From Struthio camelus (Eukaryota > Chordata > Aves > Struthioniformes > Struthionidae), in assembly GCF_040807025.1 (NCBI RefSeq), contig NC_090968.1:5693906-5757905 (forward strand): DNA of 64,000 bases, in the 5' to 3' direction. Below are positions 18,311 to 62,564 of this stretch, one piece after another. The stretch's first letter is position 1. Every line of letters begins with the position of its first letter. The translations under genes and the position numbers were made by a program. Under the pieces are notes generated by a model, which was not told the origin of the DNA, searched no databases, and saw nothing but the letters and a program-made list of their open reading frames with translations.

Positions 18311-18783
18311 CTGCGCGCAGGCAGGTCCCGCTGCGGCTGGGGGCAGATGGAAGGATGGGGGCGGATGGAGGGAGGGATGGAGGGATGGGGGGGTTGAAAG
18401 GGCTCCCGCAACCCCCCAGCTTGCAGAGCGAGGGGACCCCCGGGAGCGCCGCTGCCTCCTCCCGGAGCCCCGGCTCAGCCTGCCCGCTCCGCGGAGCGCA
18501 GCCCGGCAGCAAGGGCGGCGGAAGGGCGTCCGCGGCTGCGCTGCCCTCCGCGCTGCGCGGAGCCCCGGCCCCCCGGAGGGGCGGAGAGGCGCGGGGAGGG
18601 CCGGGCCGGGGAGGGGACGGGCGGCACGGGCGGCTCTGCCCCCTCTGCTGCCGCCGGGGCTCGGCGGAGCGCGGCCGCCCCTCGCCGCGCCCCCCCCCGC
18701 CGGCAGCCGGAGGCGGGCGCGCAGCCCCGCTCGGCACAGCCGCCGGCAGCCGGGCGCAGCGCGGAGCTCGCGGAGCGCCGAGT

Positions 18784-18924
18784 CGCGGTGCGCGGAGCGC
18801 GGAGCCCGGTGGGCGCCCGGCCGCGGTGCGCGGAGCCCGGTGCGCGCTCGGAGCCCGGTGCGCGCCCGGCCGCGGTGCGCGGAGCCCGGTGCGCGCTCGG
18901 AGCCCGGTGCGCGCCCGGCCGCGG
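18784..18924 (+). repeat. 49-bp GC-rich tandem repeat in the GFRA2 promoter/5' UTR
   Basis: Two complete 49-bp units (18821-18869 and 18870-18918) follow a related 37-bp partial unit (18784-18820) and are followed by the first bases of another. The spacing is exact. Each unit contains two copies of a GGAGCCCGGTGCGCGC core. The repeat is almost pure G+C and lies about 270-400 bp upstream of the start codon. Confidence 0.9.
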
Positions 18925-18971: not shown

Positions 18972-19186
18972 CGGCTGACGGCCCCGGCTCCGCGCCGGGC
19001 GGAGCGCACACACACCTCTCTCTTTCGCAGCGCGCCGCGGACCCCCGGCGTCCTCGCCCGGATTTGGGATCTACCTGGCCGCCTTGGGTTTGGGGGGATT
19101 TTGTTCATTCCCCCCCCCCCAACCACACGCCTTTTTTTTATTTTTTTATTTTTTGCGCACGTGGAGGAACTCTTGGATTTACTAAC

Positions 19187-19226
19187 ATGATCTTGGCAAA
19201 CGCCTTCTGCATCGTCCTCTTTGTAG
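19187..19226 (+). CDS. GFRA2: GFRA2 coding exon 1 (signal peptide)
   Basis: The exon encodes residues 1-13 and the first base of codon 14. The ATG at 19187 is chosen because the [13 protein letters not shown] start is diagnostic of GFRA2, and the donor that follows (TAG|GTGAG at 19226/19227) leaves phase 1, which fits exon 2. The hydrophobic stretch I2-V13 is the core of a secretory signal peptide; by analogy with human GFRA2 cleavage would fall near residue 21. The context before the ATG (ACTAAC) has A at -3, which is favourable. The exon sits at the 3' edge of the CpG island. Confidence 0.96.
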
Positions 19227-31200: not shown

Positions 31201-34200
31201 AAGAGCAGAGAGCAGGATTTCCTCCCCCAGCTCGGTGCGAGTTAACACTCCTATCATCCTTTAACTAAAACGTCTCTTTTAGCTCAAATGACCTTCTTAC
31301 CTCTTGCACTATTTTTCAAGACAGATCTACTTATAAATCATATATCATAAGAAGCATTCACTTTACGTATGTCTTATCAAGCTCCCCGTCTCCGCTGCCG
31401 TGGTAGATCTCCACGCGGTGCATTAATCACGCAGATGACACGTTTGACATTTAGAGGGCTTTCTCTGAGCAGCTTTCCTCCGTCGGCGCCGGGGCTCGTG
31501 TCGTCAGCGCTGCGGGCTGCGCTCCCCGGCGGGAGGGGAGCCCGACGGCTCGCTGCGGCCGGGGCGCGACGGGGGGCCGGGGCTGGGGGTTTGCAGCGAG
31601 GGGGCGGGCGGCGTGACCCCCCGAGCGCCCCTCCCTTGGGGGGCTGGTCCTGCTGGAGCGGGACGGGGGCCAGACCAGGAGGGGCATGATGCTCACGCAG
31701 GCAGCTGCTTGCCGTTTGCTAATTTGCAGGGCCGGCGACTATTTCTGTTAGGAAACCCTCCTCCGCGCCCCCATTTGTCTTTGCCAGTGGAAACCAGGGA
31801 ACAATGGAAGAATCCAAGAAATTGGTTGGGTTGCAGAGAAGAGGCAAGTAGGGAAGAAATTACTGGTGCAGTCAGGTGGCTTTTAAAATACCACCTGGCT
31901 TGCCAAGGGCAATTCATCATTTTGACAAAAAATAAAAAAAAAATCGGTGCTTGTTCCCGCTCGGCGGTTCGGCTCTGTTTGCCCACCCTCCCCGTGCGCT
32001 GTGTTTGCTGATGGCCGGGATTCCCGGCGTGGATGCGGGAGCCGGCCGGCGCCTGGCAGGTGGCACGTCCTGGCGCGGGCCAGGGTGCGTGCGGCTCCGG
32101 CCGAGCCCACCTCGGAGGAGGAGGGGCCAGTGGGAGCAGCCCCCGGGCCGGCACCGGGATGCTCGGAGGTGACCTGGTTTCTGGGGAGCCTCGGGAGGCG
32201 ATGCAGAGGCTGGCTGGGCCCCCATGCAGCACAGCAGATTATTCCACTTTGTAGCTGGCTGAATAATTAATAATTATTCCCTGAATAATTGACTAGGAAA
32301 AATATTGCAGATTCACGGCATAAATGAATGCCACACGTGTCCTGGCATCGCCAGCCACTCCACCGTCCCCCTGGCCCGCGCTCACCCCTTCTCCCGCTTG
32401 CTCCCCGGGCAGGAATGGACCCCACCGCCAACTCCAAAAGCAACCACTGCCTCGACGCGGCCAAAGCCTGCAACCTGAACGACAACTGCAAGCGGCTGCG
32501 CTCCAGCTACATCTCCACCTGCAGCAGGGAGATCTCGGCGGCCGAGCACTGCAGCCGGCGCAAGTGCCACAAGGCGCTGCGGCAGTTCTTCGACCGCGTG
32601 CCCAGCGAGTACACCTACCGCCTGCTCTTCTGCTCCTGCAAGGACCAGGCCTGCGCCGAGCGCCGGCGCCAGACCATCGTCCCCTCCTGCTCCTACGAGG
32701 ACAAGGAGAAACCCAACTGCCTGGATCTGCGGAGCATGTGCCGGACGGACCACCTCTGCCGGTAAGGGCTGCGTGGCACGGGGCTCCCTGCGCGCCTCCG
32801 GGGCTGCCGCGGGTTTCTCCCAGCCCCTCCGTGCCACGAGGAGACCTGCGGGTCGTAGAGGGGATTCGGGGCTGGCCCGCGGTGGGGGTTGCAACGCTCC
32901 CTCCTTGCACGACCCTAGTGCAAACCTGGCGCCTTGGCGTTTTCCCAGCGCGGTGAGCCGTTTGCCGGCTGGGTCTCCCCTGGTGCTAGGATTACGTTTC
33001 GTACGGCGTAAAATGGTGCAGAGTTAATGTTTTCTGGATGGCGGTTCAGAGGTTGGTGGGCTCAGAGGCGGCCCGGGGGTCTCCCCTCTTGCTGCAAGGT
33101 GGAGCTGAGGATTTTTCCAGGCTTGCGGGCGGTTCCCAAGGCCTGGGGTCGCTGACTGCGTTTCCCTGGGCGCCGTTTGCTTTGCTGCCTCCCTCCAGGG
33201 AGCCCCGAGGCTGCAAGGGAGCGATGCCCGCCGATCCAAACGCCAGCTTGGAGGCAGCTGCCTTTCCACCTGCTGCCACTAGATCTGGTGCAGGGTCCCC
33301 AGGGAGCTGCGCCGTCTCCGTTCCCACCTGGGAACGGGCTCTGCTCTGTCTCGCCGAGCCACGGGGGAACCAATGCACCAAAGGCACCACGGCAGCGGCG
33401 GCATCGCAGCCCCGCAGGCAGCGGGACCCCTGAGCACGCTCTCAGCATCCCTAGGCGAAACTTCATCACTGGCAAAAGCAGCGTTTTCCCTGTGGCAGAG
33501 CTAAGTCAAGGGAGATCAGGTTTTTGCTTTGTTATGAAACTCATTATTCATATGGCAAAAAAAAAAAAAAAAAAAGCTCGTCACCCTCCAGGGGCCGGAT
33601 CAGCCTCATAAAGAATTTGTTTCCTGCGAGGAGGAAGGTCTCTTTGCCGTCAAGGTGATGGAGGTTCCCAGAGTCTGGTGGCAAAATAAATAAATAACAG
33701 TTCCAGGTCCTCCACTCACTGCAAGCGAATGTGTTTGCAACGTGGGAATGTGGCTTTTTATCAAAAAGTAATACCATAAGCCAGTGTCTATGAATAAAAG
33801 ATATCAGGGCTGCGCTGAGTTGCGGCCAAATTAATGGCAGCACCTCTCCGTCAGCGGCCCTGACGCTCGCTCGCGCGTTAAACGCTGGGGCTGCATCCAG
33901 CTCACGGAGGGGAATAACCCGCATTAGCCACGTGTTGAGAGGCTGCGGAGCATTAATTATCAGCCTATTCCAGCATGAAATGAAATTTAGCCTGACGGAG
34001 GTGGAGCGGCAGAAGGGTGGGAAGCGTGCGGCATCCGCCTCCGCGTGGGGGACGTGCGCTCACCAGGTTGCTCCGAGTCTGAATACGTTTCCCGGCACGG
34101 CGTGTCCCGGAGAGCGCTGGGACAGGCCCGGGTACGGCAATGCCTCCCGTCGCAGGGGGGGCTGCAGCTGCGGAAGTATTTAAAAGCAGTGGCCTATTCA

Positions 34201-37200
34201 GGGGTGAGCGGTGCCCAGCGCCTGGAAGAATTTTGCTCGGCCGGCGCTGCCTTGCGTGGGAGGGAGGGTCTGGCTTTCTCGCCCCTGGCATCATGTGCAC
34301 AGCTTGCTATATGAGTAGATATGCACTTTATTGCCCTCTGCTCGCTGCTGTTTCGGGCCTGGGGTCCCCTCGGCGCTGTTCTGCCCGCACTGCTCCGTCC
34401 TTCCCTCTGGCTCTGCCCGGAGAAGTCTCCTGTCTGTGCGTGTCGTCCCCTGGAGGTGGCGGATCCCCAGTGCCCAGACATCCCCGGCGCCGCGGGACGG
34501 CTGCAGGGTTTCACAGCGTTGCACGAGGCTGCGATGTCCGGGCAGCTCCGCCGCGGGACGGCCGCAGCGTTGCACGAGGCTGCGATGTCCGGGCAGCTCT
34601 GCGTGGCAGTGGCAGTGAAGCCGGATGCAGACTCCTCTGGCAGCTGCTGTCTGTGCTTGCTCGGAGGGCTTGGAGGTGTCACGGCTTTCGGATGGGTTTG
34701 GCCTGGTGCAAAGAGGTCCCGCTCAGCGGCTGCGCACAGTGCCGTGCTGCGGGTTCGGTGCCCGCCTGCGGTTCGGGGCGGCTGCTTGTGCGGCATATCT
34801 GCTTTTGCTGTGTGGCTCCGTGCTTGCTTTGCAGGAGGAGGACGGCACCGTTAGCCTGTGCATCGCAGGAAGGGCCTCTGCCTTCGTCTCCAAGGCCCCC
34901 CTGCGTTTATTAATAACAAAGCGTTGGCGGAAAGCCACTGCCCAGGTGGTAATCCCAGCTCTGGGTGCTGGCAAGAGGTATGACTGGAGCGGGCCGGCTC
35001 CGTCCTCCTTCGCCCCGGCCGCCCCAGGGGCACAGCGGGGATTTCTGAGTGGTGCCTGCGCTTATCAGGCAGCATCGCGGACTGATGCTCGTCTTCCTTA
35101 TCGGTACATGGGACTGGCAAGGCCAATTGAGCTCTGAAGCAAATCAGCAAGCTGAGCGGTGACAGGAGACGAGATAACGCTCCCGCGCCGGGCTGGGAGC
35201 GCAATTAAGCCTCGCAGCCGGACGCCTAAGGCGAGGCGAGGCGCTCCGCACCGGGAGAGCCCGCGAAGGGCAGCTTTCTGCCGCAGCCTGGCCGCGGTCG
35301 GTGCAGGCGGATGCGGACCCAGCCCAAGGCTGGCGAGGAGCCCGAGGGTGCTCCTTCCACCCGCGCAGCCGGCCAGCTCGGCGGGAGAGGCTCGGAGGGC
35401 GTCGGAGAGCCAGGAAGGGCAGGAGATGCTCGAGCGGGGAGGAGGTTGGCCCTGCCGGACAGAAATGACCTTGCGGTCACTCGTAAAGGGCCGTTCCTGC
35501 AAGGAGCATGCTTTCTTTTCTGTTTTTCTGCTTACTTTGTTCCCACTCCCAAATGGAAAGAAGCAGAGGAATTGGAGGGGGGGTGTATTAATTTATATAT
35601 TTACTTTTGCCTGGCTGAAAATTTGCCACGGATGTCTAGCAGGCAAAACAACTGTTTGGGAGGTTTCATGGCTTTCTGCCGCCGCTCTCCGGCTGCACAG
35701 GGCTGGCTGTTAAGTGGCCGTCAAACACCAGCCGCTGCCCCATCAATAGTCATAAAGTTGGGGAGATAAAAGCCATCAGTTTTTCATTACAGCTGAAAGC
35801 AGTTGTGCAGACTGAGCGCGTCGGACAGAGGTGTTTTGACTCGCAGGCGGTGTCCCTGCACGGGCAGGGCTCCCGATCGCGGCCAGGAGCCGCGCGGGCT
35901 CGGGGCCCCGCGAGCGCCAACCTGTGCCTTTCCACCCCTCGGTCCCCCTCGGCAGCAGGAGGCCTGGGGATGTGCCAGGGTTTTTCTAGTCTCTTGGCAC
36001 CAGCTCCCTGGGCTGAAATCCTAGGCAGGCTATAGATGAATCAAGTTAAACAGTCTCAGCCTATTCCCTAAGGAGGCTCAGGCGCAATGTAATATCATAT
36101 TGCCTTTTTTTCTTATTTCGTGCATTTCTTTGACACCACTTGGACAGAAGATTTGGGAAGTAGAGAAGGCTGGCTGGAGAAAAGGTGACTCTTGGTAGCT
36201 TGAAATCCTCCTGCTCTTCCTCTGTTTTTCTGAGGCCTTAAAAAGCCCCCAAGAGGTTTCCTGTCCCCCAGCCCTGACCCTTTCTCCAAACTCCCAGCCA
36301 TGAGAATAGGGAGCAATCAGACACAGATCGGTGCAATTTGTGAAGCTTTTCGTGCCAGGAAGCTTTTCCCAGCACAACAGAGGATTCTGACAAACTCCCT
36401 GAGCTTTGTGTCTGATTGCAACGGACAGGTTTTAGCTCCCAGAATATAAAAACCTTTTGCAAAACACTAACCTCAGCTAAGGGGGAAAAAGAAGGAAAGG
36501 GGAGAAAAGAGCTGATTTCAGCAGCTGCAGTTTGCTGTATTTTTCATCTTGCATCAGCAAGTCAGGAACACAAATAATCTGCTCTTATATGCTTCACTGA
36601 TGCTGGTGCTGAAGAATTTCCCAGCCTCCACTGGCTGTCGTTCCTCAGCACCCGAAGGCAGCGTAATGTTTCTTTTTCTTGTGGTTTTTTTCCCCCCTTT
36701 TTTTTCCATGCATTTCAGCATGGCTGAACTGGCTGGGGAGGCCAGGTCTTGCCCAGCTCCTTGCTGGGCCCCGGCGGTCCCCTGCATCTCCACGTGCATC
36801 GCTGAGGTCCGTTTCCCAAGAGCAGCCCCCGGGCTGGGATCAGCCTTTTCTAGCTAGCGCGTACCCTGCGCGGGTGAAGGGAATTCATGAGAAATGCGCT
36901 GGGGAGGGAAAGCTTTGCTTCGTCACCCAAAACCCAAGGGGGACGCCTGGCTTGGGGCAACATCCTTGGCCTGAAACGGGCCCCGTTTGGTGCTGGGACG
37001 GGGAGCAGGGCTCGTAGGGCTGGGGGTGGCTGAGGTGGGCACGAGGCCAGGAGCAAATCCCGCCCGGCTCGGTACTGATTGAACATAAAACGCGGGAACA
37101 AAATCCTGTGGTTTTTTGTCGTCTTGTTTTTTTTTTTAAACCTGCGTCCTTGTCTTCGCGCCCTTTGTTTAGCACAGACAAAGTGACATTTATAACGGAT

Positions 37201-40200
37201 GTTGCTTTGATAAACAGCAGAGCGGCAGCTCAGCTTTCTCATTATACCCTGTAATGAGAGCGGCTTGAAGGAGCAGCTCAGCTGTCCGCACATTTGTCTG
37301 GGAAGAGGGAGGAGGAGGAAAAAAAAACCGCCCCTGGATTTAGAGGTGGCTCTGCAGGCTGGGAGCGTGATGCCCGGGGCCTCCAGATCCACCCCAAACT
37401 TGCAAATCTGCAGGGTTTGGTGGCTTCTGCTTCCCAAGGGAGGAGAGGGGCGGGCGGGCGAGCCGGCTGGGCTGGAGGAGTCCTCTGGATACTGGGCTCG
37501 GTGGCTATCTTGCTCAAGGCTAACCACACTCTTAACACAATAATAAGTCAATTCGCACTGAATAATTAAATAGAGAGCCTTCATAAGTATTGACTTAATG
37601 TGACAGCAAGTCTATACTGACTCAGGGTTTGCTTATGTAAACACAATCTCTTGTTCGGCTTAGTTAGCAGTTCAATGAAATAGAACAGTCCTTCAATTAA
37701 AATCAAATGATGCGTGCGTTTAATTCTTCCCTTCCCTTACCGGGTAATAACAGGTTTTGAGCATAGATGAGAGGATAAGAAAATCTTTCAACTGCTCTTA
37801 TCCATGATGAATCAAAATGCAGTGTCCTGAAGATATATATGGATAACTAAACTTCCCAATTAACAGTTCCTAACTTAGCAGTTGATCTGTTGTCTATTTG
37901 TCCTCATTGTCTTTTTTTCTCACTGCTCTTAATATCTAATCTGCATCTCTCTGGTTCTCTCTCCTTTTGCCTCCTCCCTTCAGTTCCCGTCTTCCTGGGC
38001 AAGGGCAGCTTTGGGAAGAAGGGTGGCTTATGGGAGCTACCGCTCACCCGTTCTGAGCCTCCGGAGCTAGGCCGGGAGGTGATTTTTTTGCTAAAAGCAG
38101 AAATAACGTCCTCCTAGTTCATACCAGAAGAGTTGACTCCAGTCTCCAAATTTGGCCAATAGCTTTGCTTGGCTAAAACAAATCTTTCCATAGATCTTTT
38201 TCTCCGTGCTACATTTGCAAGCTTTGGTAGAGGATCATCCAGAAATGTGGAATTTGCTCTGGCTTCCCTCTCGTTTCTCTAGCTGATCCCCACTCCCTCC
38301 TGCAGCCCCACGTGCAGCTCTTGGCCCGGACCTCAGAGCTTCCTATGCTAAAGTGCGCAGGGGCTCTTTGCTCCCAGCAGCCTGGGCTGGCTCCCCCGAT
38401 GGCTCCTCGCCGAGAACGACAAACCTGCCTACGTGTTTTCCCCTTCTTCCCCACAAACGGGTTTTTTTTCCTCCTGCTTCCCAGAAAGCAGCCCCCAACA
38501 GGCCTTTGAATATGTCTTTTCCCCACTGAACTTCCAAATAAATCCCGTGCTGGCCAAGGGTGCTCCCTGGGAGCCGCTGCTTCAAATTGCCTGGCCGCGC
38601 TGTTCTTGTTGTTTAAGGCTAACTTTTTTTTAAATCTCGGCATCTCACAGCTTTGCAAGCGTTCATCCCCAGCGCTACGAGGCAGGCAGAACAAGTGTCA
38701 GGAGGAGGACGCCCAGCGGGCCCGGAGAGCTGTGGGTTTTTCATCTCTTGCTGGGTTTTGCATGTTGGCGCAGCTTCTTGAACATCCACTGCGCTGCGGG
38801 AGCGGGGGGGCGGGGGGAGGCGCGTTTCCGAGCCGCCTCTCGACGCTTGTGTCTATTAAAGCCATTTTTTCTCGATCCCTGTAAATTGCCTGTGAAAATA
38901 CACGTCTTGAGTAATCTCTGCATCTTGGACATTTTCTGCATGAAATATTCAAGAGCCTGGTACTGTTTGCTTTGATGGGTAGTGAGTTATTAGCAGCGCT
39001 GGGCTTGGACTTCTCATAGGCAGTCGGTGATGGGAACAATTAGCACCCAATTAGGCACCTTGCATCTGTTCTGGGGAATTCTCGCCTTAAAAATTGCAAC
39101 AAACCAACGAGCAAAAAAAAAAAAAAAAGAAAACAATCAAAAATCTTCTGCCGTGTAGGTAACTTTTAATGTTAGAGGGAGGGTGTCTGGCTGGCGCTGG
39201 CAAGCTGCTTCCGCGGTGCTGCACGGTACCTAGGCTGGCAACGGGGTGAGCGGGCTCGAGCCGACGGGTCGGTCCCCGCAGCGAGGCGCGGGCTCCCCGC
39301 TCCTGGCCCTGGCCGAGCCGCTCGTCTGCGCTGAGCTGCCGGGCACGGGCCCCCCGGCAGCGAGGCGGCCCACCGACGTGGCCCTGGGATCAGCCGCCAG
39401 CTCTCCCTGCTGCAAGGAGTTTGCAGAGGGGCTGGAAAGCTCCTAAATGCCAAAATCCAGCATGCAACGCTCAGGGCCTGCTGCCCAGGTCGCCTCGTCC
39501 CAGCCTTCTCATCCAGAAACCGAACACGGTTTCTAGATGAATTCATCAAAGAGAAACTGCTCGGAAAACCCTAACTTTGAAATCCAGTGCTTGGCTGGGG
39601 TCTGGACATGATTTATTTTTGTTAATCCTTTTTTCACTCTTTTTTTTTTTTTTTATTCCCCTTGGATGCCTTTCAGGAAAATACCGGGCTGGCCGAGCCG
39701 GCTGCCGCGCAGCGGGGCGCTGCGCTCCGGCTCCCCGCGCCGCTTCCCTGCCTTCCCCGGCCCGCAGCGCGGCTCTGCCCGGAGCAGGTCTCCGGCTTCG
39801 AGGCAGGGGCCGGACAGGCCACCTGCCGCTCGAGCTGCGAGCCAGCCGTTTGGCACAAATTCCACCCGTTTCTGCTAGGATGGACTTGGCTCCCTCTCCT
39901 TTTCGCCCAGGCACTTAAAAGCAGAAATCCGAGAAGCTATGGGACCGTTCCAGTAAGGTTTATTCCTGGCAGGGAGAGTCTCATCCAGTGACTGCGAACT
40001 CATTGTATACAACGGAAAGAGTGACATCTGGCTTGGATATTCTGCAAAGATTACCAGCTGGCTTGTCATGTATTATGAAAAGAATAACATTTGCCTTAGA
40101 GGATGCTACAAGCCAGGAGCAGGGCCCCGGGGAGCAGTGTGACAAATTTGCATGGCACTCCGTGATGAACTTGCCACCGTTCTTTAAGAGACTTGACATG

Positions 40201-43200
40201 CCTTCGCCTCTAATTTGGGGAGAGGGAAATGCCCTCCCCGGAGCAGAGGGGGAGGAGGAGGAGGGAGCGCAAACGCCGCCCTGCCGCGGGGCCGGCTGGG
40301 CAGGAGCGGCGCTGAGGCTCGTGGCCGCCCGCCCCGCGCTCTCCCCTCCTTTGGGTCCCGCGCGCGAGCCCCGCTGCAGGCAGCTCTGCCCCAAAAGCCC
40401 TGCGGGAGCCGCTTTTTAGGGGGGGCTGAGCCCCCCTCCCCGCGCCCCTAGCAAAGCACTTTGCACGCGCCGGGGCTTCGCGTGCCGCCGGCGGCTCCCG
40501 CGAGCGAGGCCGGGGGCTTGCAGCGAGCTAACGGGCGGATGCGGCCATTCCCTGCGAGGCGCTGGGGAGAGGGGAGCGGAGGTCTGGGTTTGCCTCCTTC
40601 CCTCTCAAGGGCTGCCGGAGCTTGCGTTGCCGGAGGAAGAGTTTGCTCCCAGTCTCGCACTTTCCGCAGGGAGGGGAAAAAAAAGCAATGTTTTCTTTCT
40701 TTCTCCCGAAAACCCGGCCCTGCCGTTGCCTGCCTGGCGGAGCGCGGCGGCAGGGCCAGCGCGCTCCCCCCTCGCCTTCGCCGCCTGCCGCGCTGCCGTC
40801 TGCCAGGCACGGGGAGGTGCGAACCGGCAGGCAGAAGCCGGGGAATTGGTGAGTAACGTGCAAAAGAGAAACCCACCTCGTCTCGGCTGTCTGTGGCGTT
40901 GGCGCCTCCCGCCCCCTTTTCCGCTTGGACGCGGAAGCGCTGCCGGCGAGCAGCCCCGCGCCGGCTTGCACCCGCGGCGGGCCCAGGCGTCCCCGGGACC
41001 TCCGAGCTGTAGGGACCCTGCAGCTCATGACCAGCGCTTGCAGGAGCGGAAGGCAGCATCTGCAAGGCTCCATTGCAGAGCTGGCCATGAAAACCCCTTT
41101 TTTTCCTGAGCGCAGCGCTTTCTCCAAGCCTGTGCTTCCCGCGCCAGGCGGCGCGCGTCTCAGCGCGGGGCTGCAGCCCGCGGGGCTGCGGTTTGTCGGC
41201 AGGCCGGTTCAGAGCGCGGTGGCACGCGCGAGTCCTGTCCGCCCGCCCCGAGCGACCCAGAAGAAGAGGCTGACCTTGCCCTGCAAATTCGCAGTCTGCT
41301 GGGAGGCTGGAAGTGGGTCAGGCAGCTGGCATTAAGTGGGAAAAAATCATCTCAGTCGCACAACCAGCAGGCAAAAGCAAGCACGGCCGGCACACCTGGC
41401 TTTGGAAAGTGGTGAAAGGAGGATATAAAGTATAACACGGAGGTTTCCAGCTTGCTGTTTCTTGATGGGCACAAGAAGCTTTCACCAAAGCCCTCGGGTA
41501 GCTGGGGAACTCGCTGCTGCATGATGCTGTGGAGACCAAACGTGGGTGAGCCCCAAAAGAGACTCAGCAGGTCCACGGGAAATAGCTGCATCCATGGCCA
41601 TGGAGGGCTGCGGTCTGGAAAAACCCCGTTCCCTGGCAGCTGGAAACAGCGAAGGTCTCCAGGAAAGGGGCTGCCGGCGCAAGCCGCTGCCCTCGCTCGC
41701 CCCGCGTGCCCTGGCCGAGCCCCGGGGTTCGCGCTGGTGCTCCCTCGGATTGCCTTCCCCACCTCCCCGGCACGTGGCATCGCACTGACGAGCAGTATAT
41801 ATGCTCTTCGCTGGCGCTGGCTGCGTTTCAGCAGCGTCTACTCCTTCCCCACCCCTCAGCTTTTTCTTCCGTGCGCTCGAAATCCGTTGTGATGAAAAGT
41901 CCTGGATAGATGTAAGGTATTACTGCAGATCCGTGCTACTTTGTTCAATCACCGCTTCGTGTGTTCCTCCATCTAATTTGATCAAAACCTTCTGAAAACA
42001 AATTATTCCTATTTAAAAAATAACACAATTTCTACCCTTTATTTCCATCAATTCTTATGGCTTTAGGCAGGTACTGTTGCATGATTCAATCACTGGTTGG
42101 ACAAAAATGACATTTAATTAACAAGGAAGGGGAAGGAAGCTAAAGAAAATGAAGTATAGTGCTTTTTTTCCTATATAAAGTGTGGAAAAAAAGAGCCTAG
42201 GAGATTTTCTGTTGTGAAATGCCGGGTCTCATCTACCGTGTCAGCAGTTTGGCCACGTCATGGTAATTCCTCCACGGGGCTGAGATCCAGCCTGGGCCAC
42301 AGTTCAGCTTCAAGTCTATTCATTTAATGACTGAGTCAATTTGGAAAACAGATTCCCATCCGTCTGTCTGCCTGGTCCATCTGTCCACCCATCCCTGTCT
42401 ACGTCCCTCTTATTGCTTTATCTTTCTGTTTCGGTAATTTGGTCCATCCCAAGAAACTCCCCCCACCCCCCCCAAGGGGTGGCATGCAAAAACGCGTAAC
42501 CAGGTTCCAGGGCCATAATGTGATTTTTGTGATTTTGGTACTACATCGGCGGTATTACTGACGCGCCCCTCGAAAGGGCTCTTCTGCCCCCTCCGCCTCC
42601 TTCTGCCCCTTGTTGCTCCTCTTCCTCTCCTCGCCCTTCCTGCCGTTTCCCCCCCAGGCACCTCTCGGGGCCGGAGGGGGCAGCCCGGCCCCCGGGGTCT
42701 CCGCGCGGCTCCCTTTTCTTTTTCCCTTCTCAGCTGAAAAGCAGCAAAAACGCAACCCCCAGCCTCAGGCTTTTTAATTGCGCACTAAGCTTCAACGTTG
42801 CAGGGGGAAGATAAAAACAAGCAGTGAAATTTTACAGTCGTGTAACGATGCCAGGAGCGGCGTGGCCAAACGGGGCTGTGAAGCCCGCGGCGCCGCGTCC
42901 CGGCGAGCCGGGCAGAGCGTGCCCGCCGCGCCGGCCGATCCCGAGACGCTAAGGGCGGCCGGCGAACCTCCCCAAGCATCCTTCGCCCGCTGAGAAATGG
43001 GATTTGCCCCTGGAAAACTCAATTTGCTGAGGCCAAGCCGGTGGCCAGCGTCCGCAGCGGAGGCTGAGCTGCTGCCGCTCTGCTCTGCCCGTCGCTGCTT
43101 CGCTTGCAGAGGGAGCAAGCATGCCGGGAAGCGGGGGGTGACGGCCAACCGCTCTCCCTTGCCTGCCGGGCCGGAGCCGTGTCGGAGCCGTGCCCGGCTC

Positions 43201-45842
43201 CTCGAGACAAATAGCTGCAGCTCCCGCGCCACTAGATCTCATTTAGATCTCCGCTCGCTCTCCCATTTATCCTCTTCTGTCTCTTTGGGTTTTTTTTTTT
43301 TTTTTATTTTAAACTTTGCTCCTTTCCTCTCCCCGAGTTTCTCCGTTTCGGGGAAGGAGGCGAAAACGCGCTGCCCCAGCTCCAGCCCCCGTTGCTCTTG
43401 TGTTTTGGCCCCAGGTCGCGCCTGGCCGACTTCCACGCCAACTGCCAAGGCTCCCTGCAGTCCCAGAGCGGCTGCCCCGGGGACAACTTCCAGGCGTGCC
43501 TGGGCTCCTACGCCGGGCTCATCGGTGAGTGCCGGCGGCGGCGGGGGCCGGGGGGGCGCGGGCCGGCGCCCGCCCTGCCTCACCCCCCTGCCTTCCCCCC
43601 CCCCGGCCCCGGAGCAGGCTTCGACATGACGCCCAACTACGTGGACGCCGGCACGGCCAGCGTCACCGTCTCGCCCTGGTGCTCCTGCAAAGGCAGCGGC
43701 AACCTGGAGGAGGAGTGCGAGAGGTTCCTGCGGGACTTCACCGAGAACCCCTGCCTCCGTAAGGCTGCCGGGGCCCCGGGCGCGGGCTGGGAGGGAGCCC
43801 GGGGCCGGCCGCCGAGGACGCGGATGGAGGGGGTCTCGGCGGCGCCGGGCTGCTTTCCCGCGCTGCGGTAGCTGCTGCGCGGCGCGGGAGCCAGCGGGGA
43901 GGCGGACACCAGTGGAAAAGCCCCGTGAAAAGCCCAGTGGCTTTCCCCAGGGGAAAGCCTGGCATTACGGCAATCCCCAAGTAATTTTCTTCTCCCCCGC
44001 CAGGAAACGCCATCCAGGCCTTCGGCAACGGCACGGACATGAACCTCTCGGTCAAGAACCCCTTGCCCCCCGTCACCGCGCCGCCCAAGACGGAGAAAAG
44101 CCCGGCCTTGCCCGACGACATCAACGACAGCAACACCATGTACGACACGAGCGTCATCACCACCTGCACCTCCATCCAGGTAGGAGCCTCCCCGGCTGCG
44201 CAGGCTCTTCCGAAAAGCCGGGCGGGCTCAGCCCTCCCGCGCCGGCTCCCTCGCTGGCCTGATGCGCCCGGACGGCAGCGAGGGGAAGCAGGGCGGCCGG
44301 TGTTTTTGTAGCCTCTCCGGCTGCGTCCCGAGGCTTGAAGCACGCAGAAGCTTCCCGAGTCGCACGGATCCGGCCTCTGCTCGGGAGCGGGCGGAGGAGC
44401 CGCGGCCGCGAAACCCGGGAAAGGGACGGCGGCGACGCGCGGGGCTCCGGGCGGTGAAGGATGGAGATAAACCTCACGGCCCGACCTCGCTTTGCCCCGA
44501 GAGGCTGCAGCTGCTTTCGCGCCCGTCTGCCTATCGGCTATTGCTTTCGTTCCTCCCCGCTAACCGCTGCTCTGGGAGGCCGGCTCGCCCCCGGCGCTCG
44601 CCCCCGCTCAGCCGCCCGCCGGCCCCGCTCTCCGTCCGGAGCCGGCGGGATGAGCTGCTGCAGCGGGCTCCGCTGCAGCCCCTGCCCAGAGCCGGGCGCT
44701 CCCGCTGCCGCCCGGCTGGGCATCGCGAGCCGCGGCCCCCGGAGCCGCGCTGCCGCTGCTTTGGAGTCAGAACAGCCGTTCACGTTCCACGTGGTTTGGG
44801 GAAACTCGGAAAACACATGTTTTCTTACATGAGGCAGGGGGTGGCAGTGCCTGGCGGGTCCCGCTTTGCACCTCTGGGGTGAGCTCCCGCCGGGAGAGGA
44901 GCGGGACCGTACTTCCCTGGGAGCTGGCACAGTCACGGCCCCGGGGGCCCCGCGGCCTGGGGTATGGCAGCAACATAAAGAAATACTCCGGCTGCTCCGC
45001 AGGGATGTTTGCAGCAAGGAGCACGGGAGGGAAGTGACCTCAGGAGCTTTGAATGAATTTTTGCAGAGTTGCTTGCTTTGCGCTCATTCTCCTACTTTAA
45101 GCAGGAGCCCAGCAAAGACGTGAAGCAGCCTGGGGAGCAAGGGGCAAGGCTGCCTCCTCCCTCCTCTCCCTCCGCACAGCTCTCTTGACAGCTCTCGGGG
45201 TCTCAAAAGCACATGGAAAGACTTAACGTCGCTTTGGACTGCCGTTTCCGATGCCCCGTGCCAGCGCGGGTGCCCGCTCATCGCAGCCCTGTGCCAGGGA
45301 TGAGAGCGTCGCCCAGCGCCCCGGGGCCGCGCGGACCGCCGGCGGGCGGCAGGAGGATGGGAGACCCCCGTCTTCCTTTGCTCCCTGCTGCAAACCGCGG
45401 CTGCCGGAGGGTTTTGGGGGAGTGGGATGCTGAGCAGATGGGAGTTTGGCGGTTAACGCAGCTAAAACCTCGGGGTGTGCCTGCAGCCCTGGCGCCTGCC
45501 CTCAGCCTTCCTCCCGCTCTCCCTCTCTAGGAGCACGGACCGAAGCTCAACGCGTCCAGAGAGCAGAGCCTGTGCTACTCGGAGGTGAGCGCGGGAAAGG
45601 GGGCTCGGCGGGCGCCGGCGCGGGGGCCACCGCCTGCTGCAGGGTGTCCGGGCACCCACGGGAGCGTGTCCCCACCGGTGCCTAAAGCGCTGCTCTCCCC
45701 TCCTCGCCCGCAGACCCAGCTGACCACGGACCTCATGCCGGACCAGAAGACCTTCGTGGACCAGAAGGCGGCCGGCGGGCGGCAGGCGCCGGGCTGGATC
45801 CTGCCGGCTGCGCCCTTCCTCCTGGCGAAGCTGGCCTTGTAG
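19187..45842 (+). CDS. GFRA2: GFRA2, GDNF family receptor alpha-2 (nine-exon gene, coding span)
   Basis: The joined exons 19187-19226, 24438-24752, 28335-28418, 32413-32761, 43415-43524, 43618-43758, 44004-44179, 45531-45584 and 45714-45842 give 465 residues plus stop. Human GFRA2 has 464. The start [13 protein letters not shown], the three cysteine-rich repeats (about 40-105, 159-239, 249-345), the hinge and the hydrophobic C-terminus identify GFRA2 rather than GFRA1, 3 or 4, and it reads closest to chicken GFRA2. In the family this is a GPI-anchored neuronal surface co-receptor that binds neurturin, mainly through D2, and assembles with RET. It lacks an intracellular domain and signals through RET. 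All eight introns are GT-AG and phase-compatible, and no frameshift or internal stop is present. It is the only gene I can support here. Introns total about 25 kb. The identification is from memory of family sequences, not from a database search. Confidence 0.97.
19227..24437 (+). other. GFRA2: GFRA2 intron 1
   Basis: 5,211 bp from GTGAGT to TGCAG, in phase 1. The content is GC-rich and I recognise no further exon in it. Predicted ORFs on both strands do not correspond to any family I know. Moderately AT-rich stretches near 21.34-21.66 and 23.67-23.90 kb have no distinctive structure. Confidence 0.9.
24438..24752 (+). CDS. GFRA2: GFRA2 coding exon 2 (domain D1)
   Basis: The exon encodes residues 14-118 and the first base of codon 119. 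It is 315 nt, with acceptor TGCAG at 24433-24437 and donor GTACGC at 24753. It carries the first GDNF-receptor cysteine-rich repeat with Cys 40, 47, 53, 63, 78, 93, 95 and 105, the same eight positions as human GFRA2. The block [25 protein letters not shown] (about 40-70) and the [13 protein letters not shown] segment are family hallmarks. D1 is the least critical domain for ligand binding in this family. Residues 16-22 differ from the human and chicken forms I recall and include an extra Cys19 in the predicted signal-peptide end. The human D1 glycosylation site around residue 52 is absent. Confidence 0.97.
25270..25360 (+). repeat. Possible decayed MIR-like SINE, sense orientation
   Basis: The segment carries TGGGCAAGTC, then a CTCTCC and TTTTCC pyrimidine stretch, then TAAAGCACTCTGAGATC, in the order found in the central and 3' parts of amniote core-SINEs. 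Similarity is by eye and patchy. Confidence 0.35.
26185..26245 (+). repeat. Possible ancient SINE tail
   Basis: ATTTCAAAGGGCTCTGCAAA followed by CATGAATGAA resembles the conserved tail CAAAGCGCTTTACAAACAT found in several ancient vertebrate SINE families. Only about 45 bp is alignable by eye, so the family cannot be named. Confidence 0.35.
28335..28418 (+). CDS. GFRA2: GFRA2 coding exon 3 (D1-D2 linker)
   Basis: The exon is 84 nt and encodes the end of G119 through residue 146 plus one base. Acceptor CTCTAG is at 28329-28334 and donor GTAATA at 28419. The peptide [20 protein letters not shown] followed by RLASIFSG is essentially identical to the mammalian sequence, which makes this small exon unambiguous. 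It links D1 to D2 and contributes acidic and aromatic residues at the start of the ligand-binding half. Both ends are phase 1, so it can be skipped together with exon 2. Confidence 0.97.
28419..32412 (+). other. GFRA2: GFRA2 intron 3
   Basis: 3,994 bp, GTAATA to GGGCAG, phase 1. It holds an antisense MIR-like SINE at about 30514-30605 and an AT-rich stretch at 31240-31380. The long ORFs around 29.0-30.8 kb are compositionally biased and unsupported as genes. Confidence 0.9.
30514..30605 (-). repeat. MIR-type core-SINE fragment, antisense to GFRA2
   Basis: Read on the + strand, GAGGCAGGAGGATCAAGTG, then GCCCAAGG, CTGTACAG, GGAGCGAGGGTTCGAGCCC follows the antisense MIR consensus (GAGGCACAGAGAGGTTAAGTG, GCCCAAGG, TCACACAG, GGCAGAGCCGGGATTCGAACCC) in order and spacing. 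The GGTTCGAGCCC element is the tRNA-derived B-box region. MIR elements predate the amniote radiation, so a recognisable copy in a sauropsid intron is plausible. Confidence 0.6.
32413..32761 (+). CDS. GFRA2: GFRA2 coding exon 4 (domain D2 and start of D3)
   Basis: The exon is 349 nt and encodes the end of G147 to C262 and two bases of R263. The acceptor is GGGCAG before 32413 and the donor GTAAGG starts at 32762. It holds all of D2 (Cys 159, 166, 172, 183, 193, 198, 220, 222, 227, 239), the principal ligand-binding domain in the family, and opens D3 (Cys 249, 256, 262). The basic helix around [12 protein letters not shown] (195-206) and the CAERRRQTI segment (227-235) are strongly conserved family features. 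The D1-D2 linker here (MDPTANSKS) is two residues shorter than in human and matches the bird form I recall. Confidence 0.98.
34488..34599 (+). repeat. Tandem duplication, units of 61 and 51 bp
   Basis: Copy 1 (34488-34548) and copy 2 (34549-34599) abut exactly. They share CGCCGCGGGACGG at the start and a run of about 34 bp ending GGGCAGCTC, and differ by a 10-bp indel and very few substitutions. High identity indicates a recent duplication. Confidence 0.9.
37500..37880. promoter_or_regulatory. Candidate intronic enhancer in GFRA2 intron 4
   Basis: About 380 bp of AT-rich DNA in a GC-rich intron. It contains a consensus AP-1 site TGACTCA (37618-37624), a forkhead site GTAAACA (37637-37643) and many AATTAAA/TTAATT homeodomain-type motifs. 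Both strands are rich in stop codons except short frames, so this is not an exon. The enhancer role is inference. Confidence 0.4.
43415..43524 (+). CDS. GFRA2: GFRA2 coding exon 5 (domain D3, first part)
   Basis: The exon is 110 nt and encodes the last base of R263 through I299 plus one base of G300. Acceptor CCCCAG is at 43409-43414 and donor GTGAGT at 43525. It contributes Cys 273, 283 and 291 of D3 and the conserved [10 protein letters not shown] and [11 protein letters not shown] blocks. The loop [13 protein letters not shown] (275-287) is more variable between species. A pyrimidine-rich stretch with a T-run at about 43290-43306 lies about 110-125 bp upstream of the acceptor. The following intron is only 93 bp. 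Confidence 0.97.
43525..43617 (+). other. GFRA2: GFRA2 intron 5
   Basis: Only 93 bp, GTGAGT to GAGCAG, almost entirely G and C with a C-rich pyrimidine tract before the acceptor. It is the shortest intron of the gene. Confidence 0.95.
43618..43758 (+). CDS. GFRA2: GFRA2 coding exon 6 (domain D3, second part)
   Basis: The exon is 141 nt, the same length as the corresponding human segment, and encodes the end of G300 to L346 plus one base of R347. The acceptor is GAGCAG and the donor GTAAGG at 43759. It completes D3 with Cys 321, 323, 333 and 345 in the family pattern [11 protein letters not shown] followed by [16 protein letters not shown]. Substitutions against human cluster at 310-317, a variable surface segment. 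Confidence 0.97.
43759..44003 (+). other. GFRA2: GFRA2 intron 6
   Basis: 245 bp, GTAAGG to GCCAG, phase 1. The 3' half has a good TTTTCTTCTCCCCC pyrimidine tract. No other feature is seen. Confidence 0.95.
44004..44179 (+). CDS. GFRA2: GFRA2 coding exon 7 (D3 end and hinge)
   Basis: The exon is 176 nt and encodes the end of R347 to Q405, finishing in phase 0. The acceptor is GCCAG before 44004 and the donor GTAGGA starts at 44180. It begins with the conserved [11 protein letters not shown] block. It then becomes a proline- and serine-rich hinge (about 359-395) and ends with [10 protein letters not shown], in which Cys401 probably pairs with Cys420 of exon 8. Potential N-glycosylation sequons are at N355 (NGT), N360 (NLS) and N387 (NDS). 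The hinge diverges from mammals but agrees with the bird sequence I recall ([13 protein letters not shown]). Confidence 0.96.
44180..45530 (+). other. GFRA2: GFRA2 intron 7
   Basis: 1,351 bp, GTAGGA to CTCTAG, phase 0, GC-rich with no recognisable internal feature. ORFs on both strands are compositionally biased and unsupported. Confidence 0.93.
45531..45584 (+). CDS. GFRA2: GFRA2 coding exon 8 (C-terminal stalk)
   Basis: The exon is 54 nt, 18 codons, phase 0 on both sides, encoding [18 protein letters not shown] (406-423). The acceptor is CTCTAG at 45525-45530 and the donor GTGAGC at 45585. It contains an N412-A-S sequon, also present at the equivalent place in mammals, and Cys420, the likely partner of Cys401. 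Because it is a symmetrical phase-0 exon it could be skipped in frame, at the cost of that cysteine. Confidence 0.95.
45585..45713 (+). other. GFRA2: GFRA2 intron 8
   Basis: 129 bp, GTGAGC to CCGCAG, phase 0, GC-rich. Confidence 0.94.
45714..45842 (+). CDS. GFRA2: GFRA2 coding exon 9 (GPI signal and stop)
   Basis: The exon encodes residues 424-465 and the TAG stop at 45840-45842, after the acceptor CCGCAG at 45708-45713. The sequence runs [22 protein letters not shown] (424-445), then RQAPG and a hydrophobic tail W451-L465. This is the layout of a GPI-attachment signal: small residues A442-G445 as candidate omega sites, a short polar spacer, and a hydrophobic C-terminus that is removed in the ER. 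GPI attachment is established for the family; the exact omega site is inferred. Confidence 0.96.
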   Translation, partial: TQLTTDLMPDQKTFVDQKAAGGRQAPGWILPAAPFLLAKLAL

Positions 45843-54922: not shown

Positions 54923-54974
54923 GAGATACCTGCCTTGTAATTAAGGATGCATTAAACATTCAAAGCACTCTACA
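54923..54974 (+). repeat. Left copy of a conserved-looking inverted repeat pair
   Basis: The 52-bp core begins GAGATACCTGCC, has TAATTAAGGATGCATTAA in the centre and ends CAAAGCACTCTACA. Its reverse complement recurs at 57518-57569 with 50 of 52 identical. Weaker similarity continues to the right to about 55010. It contains homeodomain-like TAATTAA and ATGCATTAA motifs and has no coding potential. Confidence 0.92.
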
Positions 54975-57049
54975 GGCAAAAAGAGGAAGAGAAAAGCCCG
55001 AGCGGGATTGCCCGCGTTTAGCTTTGCACCTTGCTGGCCCGGGTGGATAACTCCTGCCTGGCCAGGCAGCACCAGGTCCTCTCTGCAGAGCAGCGCGGCG
55101 TCAAGCGCTGTAGAACAGCACGGAAGTCGACGGTCGCGTTTAGCTTCGTTGCTCGCTGCGGGTTTGAGTGTGCCAAGGGAGAGGCGAGTTATCGGCACCC
55201 TCGGCACGGGGCGGCCGGTGGGGGAGCGTGGACCCGCTACCGATCCCACGCTGCTCTGCCGGGCACCGGCTCCGGCAACGGCCGGGTCGTTCAGCAAATC
55301 GGGCCAAAGCCCAGGCTCATCCGTGGGAGGAACGGGCTGCAAACCAGATCCAAACCCCAGCGTGCTGCAGGTCGGAGAAGCTGTCCCAGTTGCTGCTGGG
55401 CTCACCCCCGAGGCTTGGCTTGGCGTTTCCAAAGCGCTCCGGGATTCCTCTGGCTGGAGGGATGGGAGCACTGCAATTTATTAGACTCGCATCAGAGCGC
55501 AATGATGCAAAAATGCAGCGCTGGCCCAACTGCGGCGATGCTGACGCCAGTGGTGGGGCGATCTCGTACCAACGGAAATCCAGAAGCATCTTCAGCTCCC
55601 CTCTATTTGGCAGCAGCAGCTGTGATGGGGCCGCGTGCGCTCGGCAGAGCAGCGAGGCACGAAACGGTGCTGGGCGAGGGGGCCCTGCGGGAAGGAGAGC
55701 TCTGAGGAGCAAGGCCAGGCTCGCAAATCCACTCCGGCGCTGTCAGGATGACTTACGCCACAAAATCTGCTCTCTGGCCTTCTGGCTCCGCTTCCGCAGG
55801 GATATGGGTGCTGGCTCTCCCGCGCCAGGCAGCTCCGTGGCGGCGTGAAACGCCTGGCAGAGCCCGCCGGCAGCAAGGCGCCTCGGCGCAGGCGGCAGCA
55901 GACCCGACCCACCGCGCAGCCCCGTGTCGCTCGGACGCCCCGGTCCCTGTCCCTTGCCTTTTCGGGCTGGCTTTTTTGCAAAAAAAAAGGCTGAACTGGG
56001 AACGAAAGTCAGTGACTGCTTGCAACGGCTGGGGCTCAGTGAGCGTGGCTTGTGCCCAGGCACCCCCAGCCCAGGAGGTTTCCGCTCCCCGAGGGATTCA
56101 TTTGCACAGGAACGGCTTTGCAGCGGGACTGACAGTAATAACGGGCTGCGGGAGCGTCCTGCTGCGGCGCTGGATGCTAACGACTCTGTGCAGGGGTGGA
56201 AGGGGCTGCTGCCGAAAGCGGCCTGTGGGCTGCTGATTTGTCGCTGAACCCTGGGATTATAATGAGTTTGCAAAGAGGCGAGCCCCTCCACGCCATGTCC
56301 CGAGCCTGGCGTGCCCCGAGGGCTGGATCCCGCGGCAGATCCGCCAGGAAAGGCCGGCCGGGGAAGGAGCCAGACCTTGGTTCGTTGGCGGGGAAGGCGA
56401 GCGCGGTGGCCGGGAGTTTGGGGATGCGCCGATCCGTCACGCGCTGCTCCGACGCAATGCCGCCGCTGCAAGGCCACCCGTCCGCCCGGTCCCCCCGGCA
56501 CCGCAGCTCCTCGTTGCTGTGGTTTTACAGCTTCCCATAAACAGTCCCCCTCCATCTCTCGCTCTGTTTTTAATTACCTAGAAAATAACCTCCATTCAAT
56601 TTACAGCTCATTTGAAGCTATGAGCAAGGGGCCATAAATATTTAATGCATTTAGAAGTGGCACCAACTGTCCAGGGCTTTTTTTTTTTTCTTTTCCAGGA
56701 GTTGCTTTGTTTTAGCACATTTATTCTCCCACGTCTTTATTTCCTCCTGTTCCCTCTATCCATAATTTCCCATGAATACAGAGCGGGTGGTAAAAGACAG
56801 CTACTGCCGGCAAAGGGTTCGACCCCTCCGCGGGCGGGCAGGTCCGCGCGCCTGCACCCAGCAGGGGTTCCCCAAAAAAGGTGGTTATGCACCCAAATTT
56901 CTGCCTCTTAACGGTGGCTTCCCGGGCGCTGCCACCTTCACACGGGGCCTCTCCGGGGCTGCTCCCTCCGCGGCACGAAGGGTCCTGCTTGTTATGCCAG
57001 CGAGCGCCTTCTGCTCCCAGGTTTTTGTGGGTTTACCCGGAACACGGTT

Positions 57050-57360
57050 TGGTTGCGTCTATTAATTACTACAACACAAATTTTATTGTAACATAATAGA
57101 TATATTTACTCTACGAGGAGTGACAGCGTTTATTAATTATGCACAAGCGGGCTTAGAAAAAGGATTTGTTTGCTTTGATGTCTAATGCGACGGACTGTTT
57201 TTTTTTCTGCTTGTTAAACTTAATCAAAAGCAATCAAAATACTCTCTCATAAATTACAGCAAATTAATTCCAAACAAAAGGGAAAAATATTAGGTAGCAA
57301 AAAATGGAAGTAAAATTAAAAAATGTGAGCTAGGATTTGAGCTAATTAAAATACCGCGTG
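57050..57360. promoter_or_regulatory. Candidate conserved AT-rich element
   Basis: About 310 bp of AT-rich DNA with repeated ATTAATTA, TTAATTA and AATCAAAA motifs, sharply bounded by GC-rich sequence. It lies between the two inverted copies. The regulatory role is inferred from composition only. Confidence 0.3.
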
Positions 57361-57517
57361 CTGCTACAGGCTTTCCTTTCCTCTGGAACGGCGGAGCAGG
57401 AATAGGAAGAGCGCGGCAACGGGCATCGGAGGGGCTGGGGGGCAGGAGCGCCGGGCGGGCTCTCTTCACCTGCCTGCAAGCAGTGATCCCACTTGCGCTT
57501 CTCCCCCTCTTGTTGCT

Positions 57518-57569
57518 TGTAGAGTGCTTTGAATGCTTAATGCATCCTTAATTAAAAGGCAGGTATCTC
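57518..57569 (-). repeat. Right copy of the inverted repeat pair
   Basis: This is the reverse complement of 54923-54974, differing at two positions (G/T in the TTG/TTTAATTAA junction and A/G in TTAAACATT/TTAAGCATT). The weaker extension reaches left to about 57482. The spacing between the cores is 2,543 bp. Confidence 0.92.
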
Positions 57570-59288
57570 ATCTATTGCTGTCAATTGGCAGCCGGGGCCA
57601 CGAGACGTTCCCGGGGGCCCGGCACCTCCCTCGCGCCGGCCCGTGCCCGCGCGCCCGCCTCCCCCTGCGTACGCCTGCTGACATTTCGAGGGGGAAATTA
57701 TGTGTGCCGCTTTAATTCACTGTTAAATTAAATTATGAATGTTTGCAACGTAGTAATTTCTTTTGTTCTAGCAGCAGATTGTTTTATATATCTGCCTATA
57801 TTACCACGTTATTAATTTAATGATTTCACAATAGCGCTTCGCTCCTCTGGGTACCGCAAAGCGAAACGTGCGCGCGGCGCGGACCGGCTCGCTCTTCCCT
57901 GCGCGCGTTGTAGGTTTTCAGGGACGCAGGGGTTGTTGCTGGCAGCGCGGCCGGGGGTTACGGAGCGGGACAACGCGCGCGCTGCCCTAAGGGGCGGCGG
58001 GGTCCCCGCCGAGCCCCAGGCGGCCCTCGAGCGCTCCCCGGTTTTGCTGCGTCTCTGCCCATTGCAAACTTTAGCCCCTCTGCTTTCCTGCCTCTTTCTG
58101 CTGCTAAAAAGGCTAAAAAGAGCCTTGCAAGCGTCGGCGCGGCCGCGGCGGCTCTGCCTGCGTCGTTGCTGGGCCTCGGCGTTGCGCCAAGCCCGGCGAC
58201 GTTTCAGCGCGTTTCTTTTCTTCAAGCCCGAACTCCCGGAGCCAAGGGGCTGCAAGGGATCTTGCACGTGTCTTTTTTTTTTTTTTCCCCCTACTCCTTT
58301 TGTCCTCCCTTGCACCACCCCATGCGGCGTGGAGAAAAGCTGGGAAAACTTGTCCACCTACATGCTCAGAAACCGCGGAAGAGCAGCAAGAAAGAAAGAA
58401 GAAAAAAAACCCAAAAAGGCGCCTGCGATTTGTTCTTTAGGAACGAGCCTCCGAGAACAAACGTCGCGTGGCTGCAGGGCGGCAAGTGGGAGGTGGCTGA
58501 GCGGCACCCGTGGGCGCCGGCTCGGCACGGGGCAGGCGGAGGCTGCTCCCGCGGGAAGGAGGGGGCGGCCGCCGGCTCGGCGCCCGCAGCATCCCTCCGC
58601 GGGATTTTGCCGCCTGGCAGCGCCCTGCTCGCCCCGAACTTCCCGCGGGACGGCGCCGGGAGCGCCCGGAGGCCCCGTTTGCGCCCTGCAAACGGCAAAG
58701 CAGCAGCTAAAGCAGCGACCCAGCGAGAACTGCTGAGCCTTGAACAGCCTCGGCCCAGCCCTGGGAAGGCTCCCAAACATAATTTCCATCCCAATCTATG
58801 CTGCTCCGCTTCTAAGGAGGTAATAGCTCCTACGGCGCTTCCGCCTCCTTTAGCTGAGCAATTTATGGCTTTTGCTTTAGCTTTCTGGCGCTCCTGGAAA
58901 GCATTTTGTTTGCATGGATTTGCACTTTTTCTCCTTCTTCTTCTTTCCATTTCTTGCTTCCAATTCTGAACGGGAAAGAAACGCTGCAAGAAGGAAATTC
59001 CAAGTTTCAGCTCTTGGCGGCCACCGAGGTCCCATTGCACGTTGTTCCCAGAAAGTGCCTGTTGACACCTCAAACGAAGCCGGAGCGCTGGGAAACGCAG
59101 CAGCCGAAACGGCCCAGCAGGTACCGCGAGAAGGATCGCGCGTCGGAGCCGTCGCGTCCCGCGGGCGCCACGTTGCGTGCCAAGGAGCGTCGCCAATGCA
59201 GCAACGCATCCATCAGTTCAGCAAGATGAATGCATTAAACTTTTATGGGCAAATTTATGCATTATAGATCAATGAGCCCCAGTGACTC

Positions 59289-62305: not shown

Positions 62306-62564
62306 GGGATGCAGGATGCAGGGCGCTGGATGTGGGATGTGGGATGCAGGATGCAGGGTGCGAGATGCAGGATGCAGGGTGCAGGATGCGGGATGCGGGA
62401 TGCGGGATGCAGGATGCAGGGTGCGGGATGCAGGATGCAGGGCGCAGGATGCGGGATGCGGGATGCGGGATGCAGGGTGCAGGGTGCGGGATGCAGGGTG
62501 CGAGATGCAGGATGCAGGGCGCAGGATGTGGGATGCGGGATGTGGGATGCAGGATGCGGGATGC
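62306..62564 (+). repeat. 7-bp minisatellite, 37 uninterrupted units
   Basis: Thirty-seven consecutive heptamers, mainly GGGATGC, AGGATGC and AGGGTGC, occur without a single insertion or deletion (259 bp). Variant order suggests a higher-order period of about nine units (63 bp): units 10-15 and 19-24 share the same order except one base. Because the unit is 7 nt and lacks stops, all six frames stay open across it, which explains the Cys/Met/Ala-rich and His/Pro-rich ORFs here. Confidence 0.95.

What the first reader, a model, noticed from the sequence alone, without database searches (positions are those of the whole stretch)
54923..57569. Near-identical 52-bp elements in inverted orientation, 2.5 kb apart
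54923-54974 and the reverse complement of 57518-57569 agree at 50 of 52 positions, and a weaker match continues for about 35 bp on the inner side of each copy (to about 55010 and back to about 57482). Both copies are AT-rich with homeodomain-like motifs, while the 2.5 kb between them is not itself palindromic. A sharply conserved core with decayed flanks suggests selection on both copies: a duplicated regulatory element, an exapted ancient repeat, or eroded terminal inverted repeats of an old DNA transposon. I see no target-site duplication outside the pair. They could also pair to form a large stem-loop in RNA.
Basis: seen in the sequence. Interest (0 to 1): 0.8.

Follow-up and report, generated by a model that had tools for sequence, protein, structure and literature searches.

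The report
Inverted regulatory-like pair beside GFRA2
A short AT-rich stretch of DNA was found just twice in this genome, as two mirror-image copies 2.5 kb apart downstream of the growth-factor receptor gene GFRA2; it is most likely a locally copied piece of a gene-control region, but whether both copies are needed could not be shown without other species' genomes.

Summary
In detail: 54923-54974 and the reverse complement of 57518-57569 match at 50 of 52 positions, and the match runs inward to about 55008/57486 (84 aligned positions, 9 substitutions, one 2-bp gap). The search of the held 1.45-Gb genome found these two places only, so it is no ordinary repeat family. In 264 kb around it, it is the only inverted repeat at E<1e-6. 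The pair lies 9.1 kb past the stop; an LZTS-family exon lies 197 kb further on (genes between were not searched for). Both arms are AT-rich (37% GC), lack CpG and carry TAATTA and ATGCATTAA, homeodomain/POU-like strings that recur nearby. There is no target-site duplication and no transposase. Best reading: a local inverted duplication of an enhancer core. Other vertebrate genomes, which would decide it, were not available. Interesting in detail, ordinary in kind.

The parts
54923..55008 (+). Arm A: 52-bp core 54923-54974 plus weaker inner extension to about 55008
   Evidence: one of 2 matches in the genome search
57486..57569 (-). Arm B: core 57518-57569 plus weaker inner extension to about 57486, inverted relative to arm A
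55009..57485 (.). Spacer of about 2.5 kb between the arms; no second copy found, no Pfam match in six frames
56560..56680 (.). AT-rich island inside the spacer with TAATTA (56571) and ATGCATTAA (56642, - strand); candidate regulatory block, borders approximate
   Evidence: conservation not tested
57040..57380 (.). AT-rich island inside the spacer with three TAATTA sites; candidate regulatory block, borders approximate
   Evidence: conservation not tested
57690..57850 (.). AT-rich island just outside arm B; candidate regulatory block, borders approximate
   Evidence: conservation not tested
59230..59238 (+). Fourth ATGCATTAA site of the local cluster
19187..45842 (+). GFRA2 coding span. Strong matches near 24437-24754, 28335-28418, 32412-32762, 43413-43793 (two blocks) and 44006-44179; weak matches for the start-codon block 19187-19226, 45510-45596 and the last block to stop 45840-45842
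   Evidence: 27 of 27 residues of the 28335-28418 exon identical to GFRA2 of PDB 6q2o; tblastn with recalled human GFRA2, five matches at E 4e-13 or better, the three weak ones at E 0.005 to 0.022; stop codon read

Best explanation
A piece of about 86 bp from a distal enhancer region 3' of GFRA2 was copied once, locally and in reverse orientation, probably by a replication template switch. Each copy carries the same homeodomain/POU-like strings, and the two most likely act as two modules of one enhancer cluster for GFRA2 (or for the LZTS-family gene further along); enhancers work in either orientation, so the inversion needs no special role. Shown: the pair, its two-copy status in the genome search, its gene context, its composition and motif content. 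Inferred: enhancer function, target gene, copying mechanism, and that both copies are under constraint.
For: Two matches in the search of 1.45 Gb, both here. Position 9.1 kb past the GFRA2 stop and 197 kb before a Fez1/LZTS-family match at C27:5948732-5949319. Arms 37% GC without CpG in a 60% GC window; 7% of 52-bp stretches in the window are as AT-rich. ATGCATTAA occurs 4 times in the window, all between 54947 and 59238; with arm B masked 3 times in 54.8-59.3 kb against a mean of 0.034, reached in 0 of 2000 local surrogates; TAATTA with arm B masked 5 times against 0.77, reached in 2 of 2000. Only inverted repeat at E<1e-6 in 264 kb.
Against: No other species could be aligned, so constraint is untested. 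The differences between the copies fit one uniform rate (9 of 84, best-split permutation p 0.12), as expected of a younger duplication without selection. The motif strings were picked after seeing the arms. TAATTA is in excess over the whole window (24 against 2.1 in whole-window shuffles, 18 of the 24 outside 54938-57554), so it is not special to the pair. No chromatin or reporter data.
Confidence: 0.5

Rival explanations
1. A local inverted duplication some tens of millions of years old in which at least one copy has no function; identity is high simply because it is not very old.
For: 9 substitutions in 84 aligned positions without significant clustering (p 0.12). At a neutral rate of about 2e-9 per site and year (recalled, not from a call) this is of the order of 30 million years. 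Template switching that leaves inverted repeats is described in great apes (PMC7954356, passages seen), there within a single replication fork.
Against: A random stretch this AT-rich is expected 7% of the time here.
Confidence: 0.36
2. Eroded terminal inverted repeats of an old DNA transposon, or two insertions of an exapted repeat family.
For: Inverted orientation and 2.5 kb spacing resemble terminal repeats.
Against: 2 matches to the 88-bp query and to the 33-bp core at up to 3 mismatches; the 3.1-kb query matches only itself and the arms; no TSD; no Pfam match in six frames of the spacer. The genome search skips very common words and scores only the best candidates, so it is not exhaustive.
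Confidence: 0.05
3. The arms pair in a transcript as a 71-bp double-stranded stem with a 2.5-kb loop.
For: Two-arm cofolding energy -105.3 kcal/mol (no shuffle control).
Against: Any near-perfect inverted repeat folds like this. The pair is 9.1 kb past the stop codon, with seven polyadenylation-like hexamers between. No Rfam match. Both core differences leave a mismatch in the predicted stem.
Confidence: 0.06
4. Assembly artefact: one arm is a false copy.
For: None found; raw reads were not available.
Against: The copies differ at 9 of 84 positions and by a 2-bp gap and have unrelated outer flanks; false duplications are usually long and identical (general knowledge).
Confidence: 0.03

Closest known systems
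Duplicated conserved noncoding elements (dCNEs) of vertebrates
   Same: A short noncoding element near a developmental gene kept in more than one copy.
   Different: [quoted passage not shown] here both copies lie 2.5 kb apart beside one gene, inverted, and conservation across species is untested.
Shadow or redundant enhancer pairs, such as the paired Sox21 lens CNEs
   Same: Two elements of one locus with possibly overlapping activity (PMC3480646, abstract start and passages).
   Different: Those are defined by activity; these by sequence identity, with no activity data.
Short-range replication template switches
   Same: They leave reverse-complement copies nearby (PMC7954356, passages seen).
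   Different: Described there as local events within one replication fork; this spacing is 2.5 kb and no ancestral sequence is at hand.
UCON and Eulor ancient low-frequency repeats
   Same: Ancient noncoding repeats, discussed with conserved noncoding elements (PMC5753468, passages seen).
   Different: Those are repeat families; this was found in two copies in one place.

Membership tests
DNA transposon terminal inverted repeats | Target-site duplication outside the pair | tested here: not met
   No abutting duplication of 3-8 bp
DNA transposon terminal inverted repeats | Transposase or remnant between the arms | tested here: not met
   No Pfam family at E up to 1 in six frames of 55009-57485; of the 3 spacer ORFs one had a DUF4764 match at E 0.24, below its cut-off. 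Non-autonomous elements would lack one anyway
DNA transposon terminal inverted repeats | Further copies in the genome | tested here: not met
   2 matches only, within the limits the tool states
Exapted repeat family (UCON/Eulor/MER121 kind) | Multiple dispersed copies | tested here: not met
   2 matches, both at this locus
Exapted repeat family (UCON/Eulor/MER121 kind) | Match to a Dfam/Repbase consensus | not testable with these tools
   No repeat library on hand
Conserved noncoding element | Noncoding position | tested here: met
   Past the GFRA2 stop; no Pfam match in the spacer. Transcription of noncoding RNA not tested
Conserved noncoding element | Conservation across species | not testable with these tools
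   The tool states that the genome has no relatives held
[quoted passage not shown]
   No match outside this locus, so none near other GFRA genes at this sensitivity
Enhancer | Activity or chromatin marks | not testable with these tools
   No functional data
Structured RNA | Match to a known family | tested here: not met
   No Rfam match
Structured RNA | Covarying stem across species | not testable with these tools
   One genome only; within it both core differences leave a mismatch

The most novel reading that the evidence does not exclude
An ancient mirrored pair of one homeodomain-type core, kept nearly identical in a single locus and in fixed inverted orientation because the two copies work together (for example as paired anchoring or cooperative modules of the GFRA2-LZTS interval), with the order and orientation themselves under selection.
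Probability: 0.07. Interest if true: 0.7.

Novelty: new member of a known kind. Interest (0 to 1): 0.3.

Why it matters
If both copies prove old and constrained, this two-copy locus is a clean natural test of whether duplicated enhancer cores are kept for dosage, robustness or arrangement, beside a receptor gene of the GDNF family. If only one copy is constrained, it is an ordinary local duplication.

Tried and rejected
Rejected: coding origin of the spacer (Pfam in six frames; 10 ORFs of the window, where the only row was DUF4764 at E 0.24, below its cut-off). A six-frame scan of the window with eight recalled signatures (homeodomain, paired, zinc finger, bHLH, forkhead, SOX, T-box, Wnt) gave one bHLH-like match, taken as chance. 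The codon-usage scan ranked no stretch clearly coding, but its row at 19097-19216 held the GFRA2 start. Pfam gave no family for the 27-residue exon peptide that identified GFRA2. Rejected: Rfam RNA. An exact scan of viral contigs for the 52-bp core gave 0 matches. Two recalled strict CTCF-like patterns gave no match in the window.

Weak leads: a 15-bp exact match to arm A at 27297-27311 inside GFRA2 (E 0.006 in the window; 0.023 in 264 kb), and four further weak repeat pairs in 264 kb (three inverted, one direct) at E 0.003 to 0.033 after masking the tandem arrays. A non-collinear match beyond the inner extension had p 0.055. The outer flanks share two 6-mers (TTGCTG, GCCGGG) in the same order; taken as chance. 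Tests that lean towards a constrained core: Fisher p 0.026 counting gap columns as identical and 4e-6 ungapped, and 0.024 without gap columns.

Literature: ten searches; of the larger results only the top rows were listed (20 of 73, 25 of 40, 20 of 120 and 12 of 33). None of six sequence strings from the window is in a held paper. No listed title or abstract start concerned this pair. The one paper found holds neither LZTS1 nor GFRA2. One search also used the term of a wrong first guess at the gene (AJAP1).

Full report
OBSERVATION. The repeat finder extends them without gaps to 71 nt at 92% complementarity with 2505 nt between; blastn gives 86 columns at 87.2% and 104 bits. Sixty local first-order surrogates of the window never exceeded 63.5 bits on the minus strand. 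Allowing a 2-bp gap, the aligned tract has 84 positions with 9 substitutions: 2 in the 52-bp core, 7 in the 32 aligned inner positions. The inner extension on its own beats shuffles at p 0.025; the outer side ends abruptly (10 of 40 agree; local alignment p 0.18).

WHERE IT LIES. A short exon at 28335-28418 encodes 27 residues identical to GFRA2 (PDB 6q2o, 27 of 27; the other GFRA sequences in the table score lower). The last frame ends in a TAG at 45840-45842. Borders of the weak blocks are uncertain. Arm A starts 9081 bp past the stop. The window is C27:5693906-5757905 of a 1.45-Gb assembly; C27 is 7,997,582 bp long. A Fez1-domain (LZTS-family) match lies on the same contig at 5948732-5949319, 197,258 bp beyond arm B. 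I did not search the DNA between for other genes. That the match is LZTS1, the neighbour of GFRA2 in mammals, is from memory; the family search also matched three other contigs and cannot tell LZTS paralogues apart.

COPY NUMBER. The 88-bp arm finds two places in the genome, the two arms. The 33-bp core at up to 3 mismatches finds the same two, with no match to the reversed control. The 3.1-kb stretch 54800-57900 finds only itself and the arms. The tool warns that it skips very common words and scores only the best candidates, so this excludes an ordinary repeat family rather than every distant relative. In the 264 kb that I could hold (the window, 50 kb upstream and 150 kb downstream), the arms are the only inverted pair among 143 rows at E below 1e-6; the other rows are direct, mostly tandem arrays. 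With the arrays masked and the limit at E 0.1, four further pairs appear, three of them inverted, all weak (E 0.003 to 0.033).

WHAT THE ARMS LOOK LIKE. Both are 37% GC without CpG in a window of 60% GC; 7% of 52-bp stretches are as AT-rich. They hold TAATTA and ATGCATTAA; I call these homeodomain- and POU-like from memory, not from a motif library. ATGCATTAA occurs 4 times in the window, all between 54947 and 59238, where whole-window shuffles expect 0.24, and 7 times in 264 kb. With arm B masked so that the duplication counts once, there are 3 in 54.8-59.3 kb against a local expectation of 0.034 (0 of 2000 surrogates reach it), and 5 TAATTA against 0.77 (2 of 2000). These strings were chosen after seeing the arms, and TAATTA is in excess over the whole window (24 against 2.1; 18 of the 24 lie outside 54938-57554). 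AT-rich islands with such sites lie inside the spacer and one more lies just outside arm B. This looks like a cluster of regulatory blocks, but no conservation or activity data were available.

IS SELECTION ON BOTH COPIES SHOWN? Ungapped, the contrast is strong (Fisher p 4e-6), but much of it comes from one 2-bp gap that throws the inner flank out of register. A uniform divergence near 11% is therefore not excluded, and the pair could be a duplication of the order of 30 million years (recalled neutral rate) with no function for one copy. The outer breakpoint is sharp in any case and gives no information on constraint.

MECHANISM. I think a local inverted duplication, probably by template switching, copied part of an enhancer region. 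The sequence does not show which arm is the source; arm B sits in the more extended AT-rich surroundings (57040-57380 and 57690-57850), which makes it the likelier parent (inference). Because enhancers act in either orientation, the inversion need not matter. Whether the second copy now adds to GFRA2 regulation is the open question; I put both-copies-regulatory at 0.5 and non-functional second copy at 0.36.

READINGS THAT FARE BADLY. Transposon ends fail copy number, target-site duplication and transposase tests. An RNA stem is energetically possible (-105.3 kcal/mol, no shuffle control) but without evidence of a transcript, and both core differences leave mismatches. An assembly artefact is unlikely given 9 differences, a gap and unrelated outer flanks, but reads were not available.

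LIMITS. No other vertebrate genome, repeat library, chromatin or transcript data were on hand. Papers were searched in one open-access library only.

The spacer was tested again in six frames and the main counts recomputed; wording on the number of exons, on the DNA up to the LZTS match and on TAATTA was narrowed.

Noticed in passing
19187-45842: The window holds GFRA2 on the + strand from start codon to stop; the two C-terminal blocks are only 31% identical to the recalled human protein, against 85-87% for the blocks at 24437-24754 and 32412-32762.
   Followed up: partly
27297-27311: A 15-bp exact match to arm A (reverse strand) inside a GFRA2 intron; marginal (E 0.006 in the window).
   Followed up: partly
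59834-59892 and 170445-170502 (window coordinates; the second in the flank fetched): A weak inverted match of 59 bp at 78% (E 0.003), 110 kb apart in the same interval.
   Followed up: no
62307-62567: Tandem array of a 7-bp unit (GGATGCA), about 37 copies.
   Followed up: no
18754-18924: GC-rich tandem array (49-bp unit with 98% matches at 18800-18924) about 260 bp upstream of the GFRA2 start codon.
   Followed up: no
30-50 kb upstream of the window (C27:5643906-5663905): GC is 40-42% in two 10-kb stretches against 52-68% in the other stretches of the 264 kb, near long tandem arrays; possible boundary of a different chromosomal domain.
   Followed up: no
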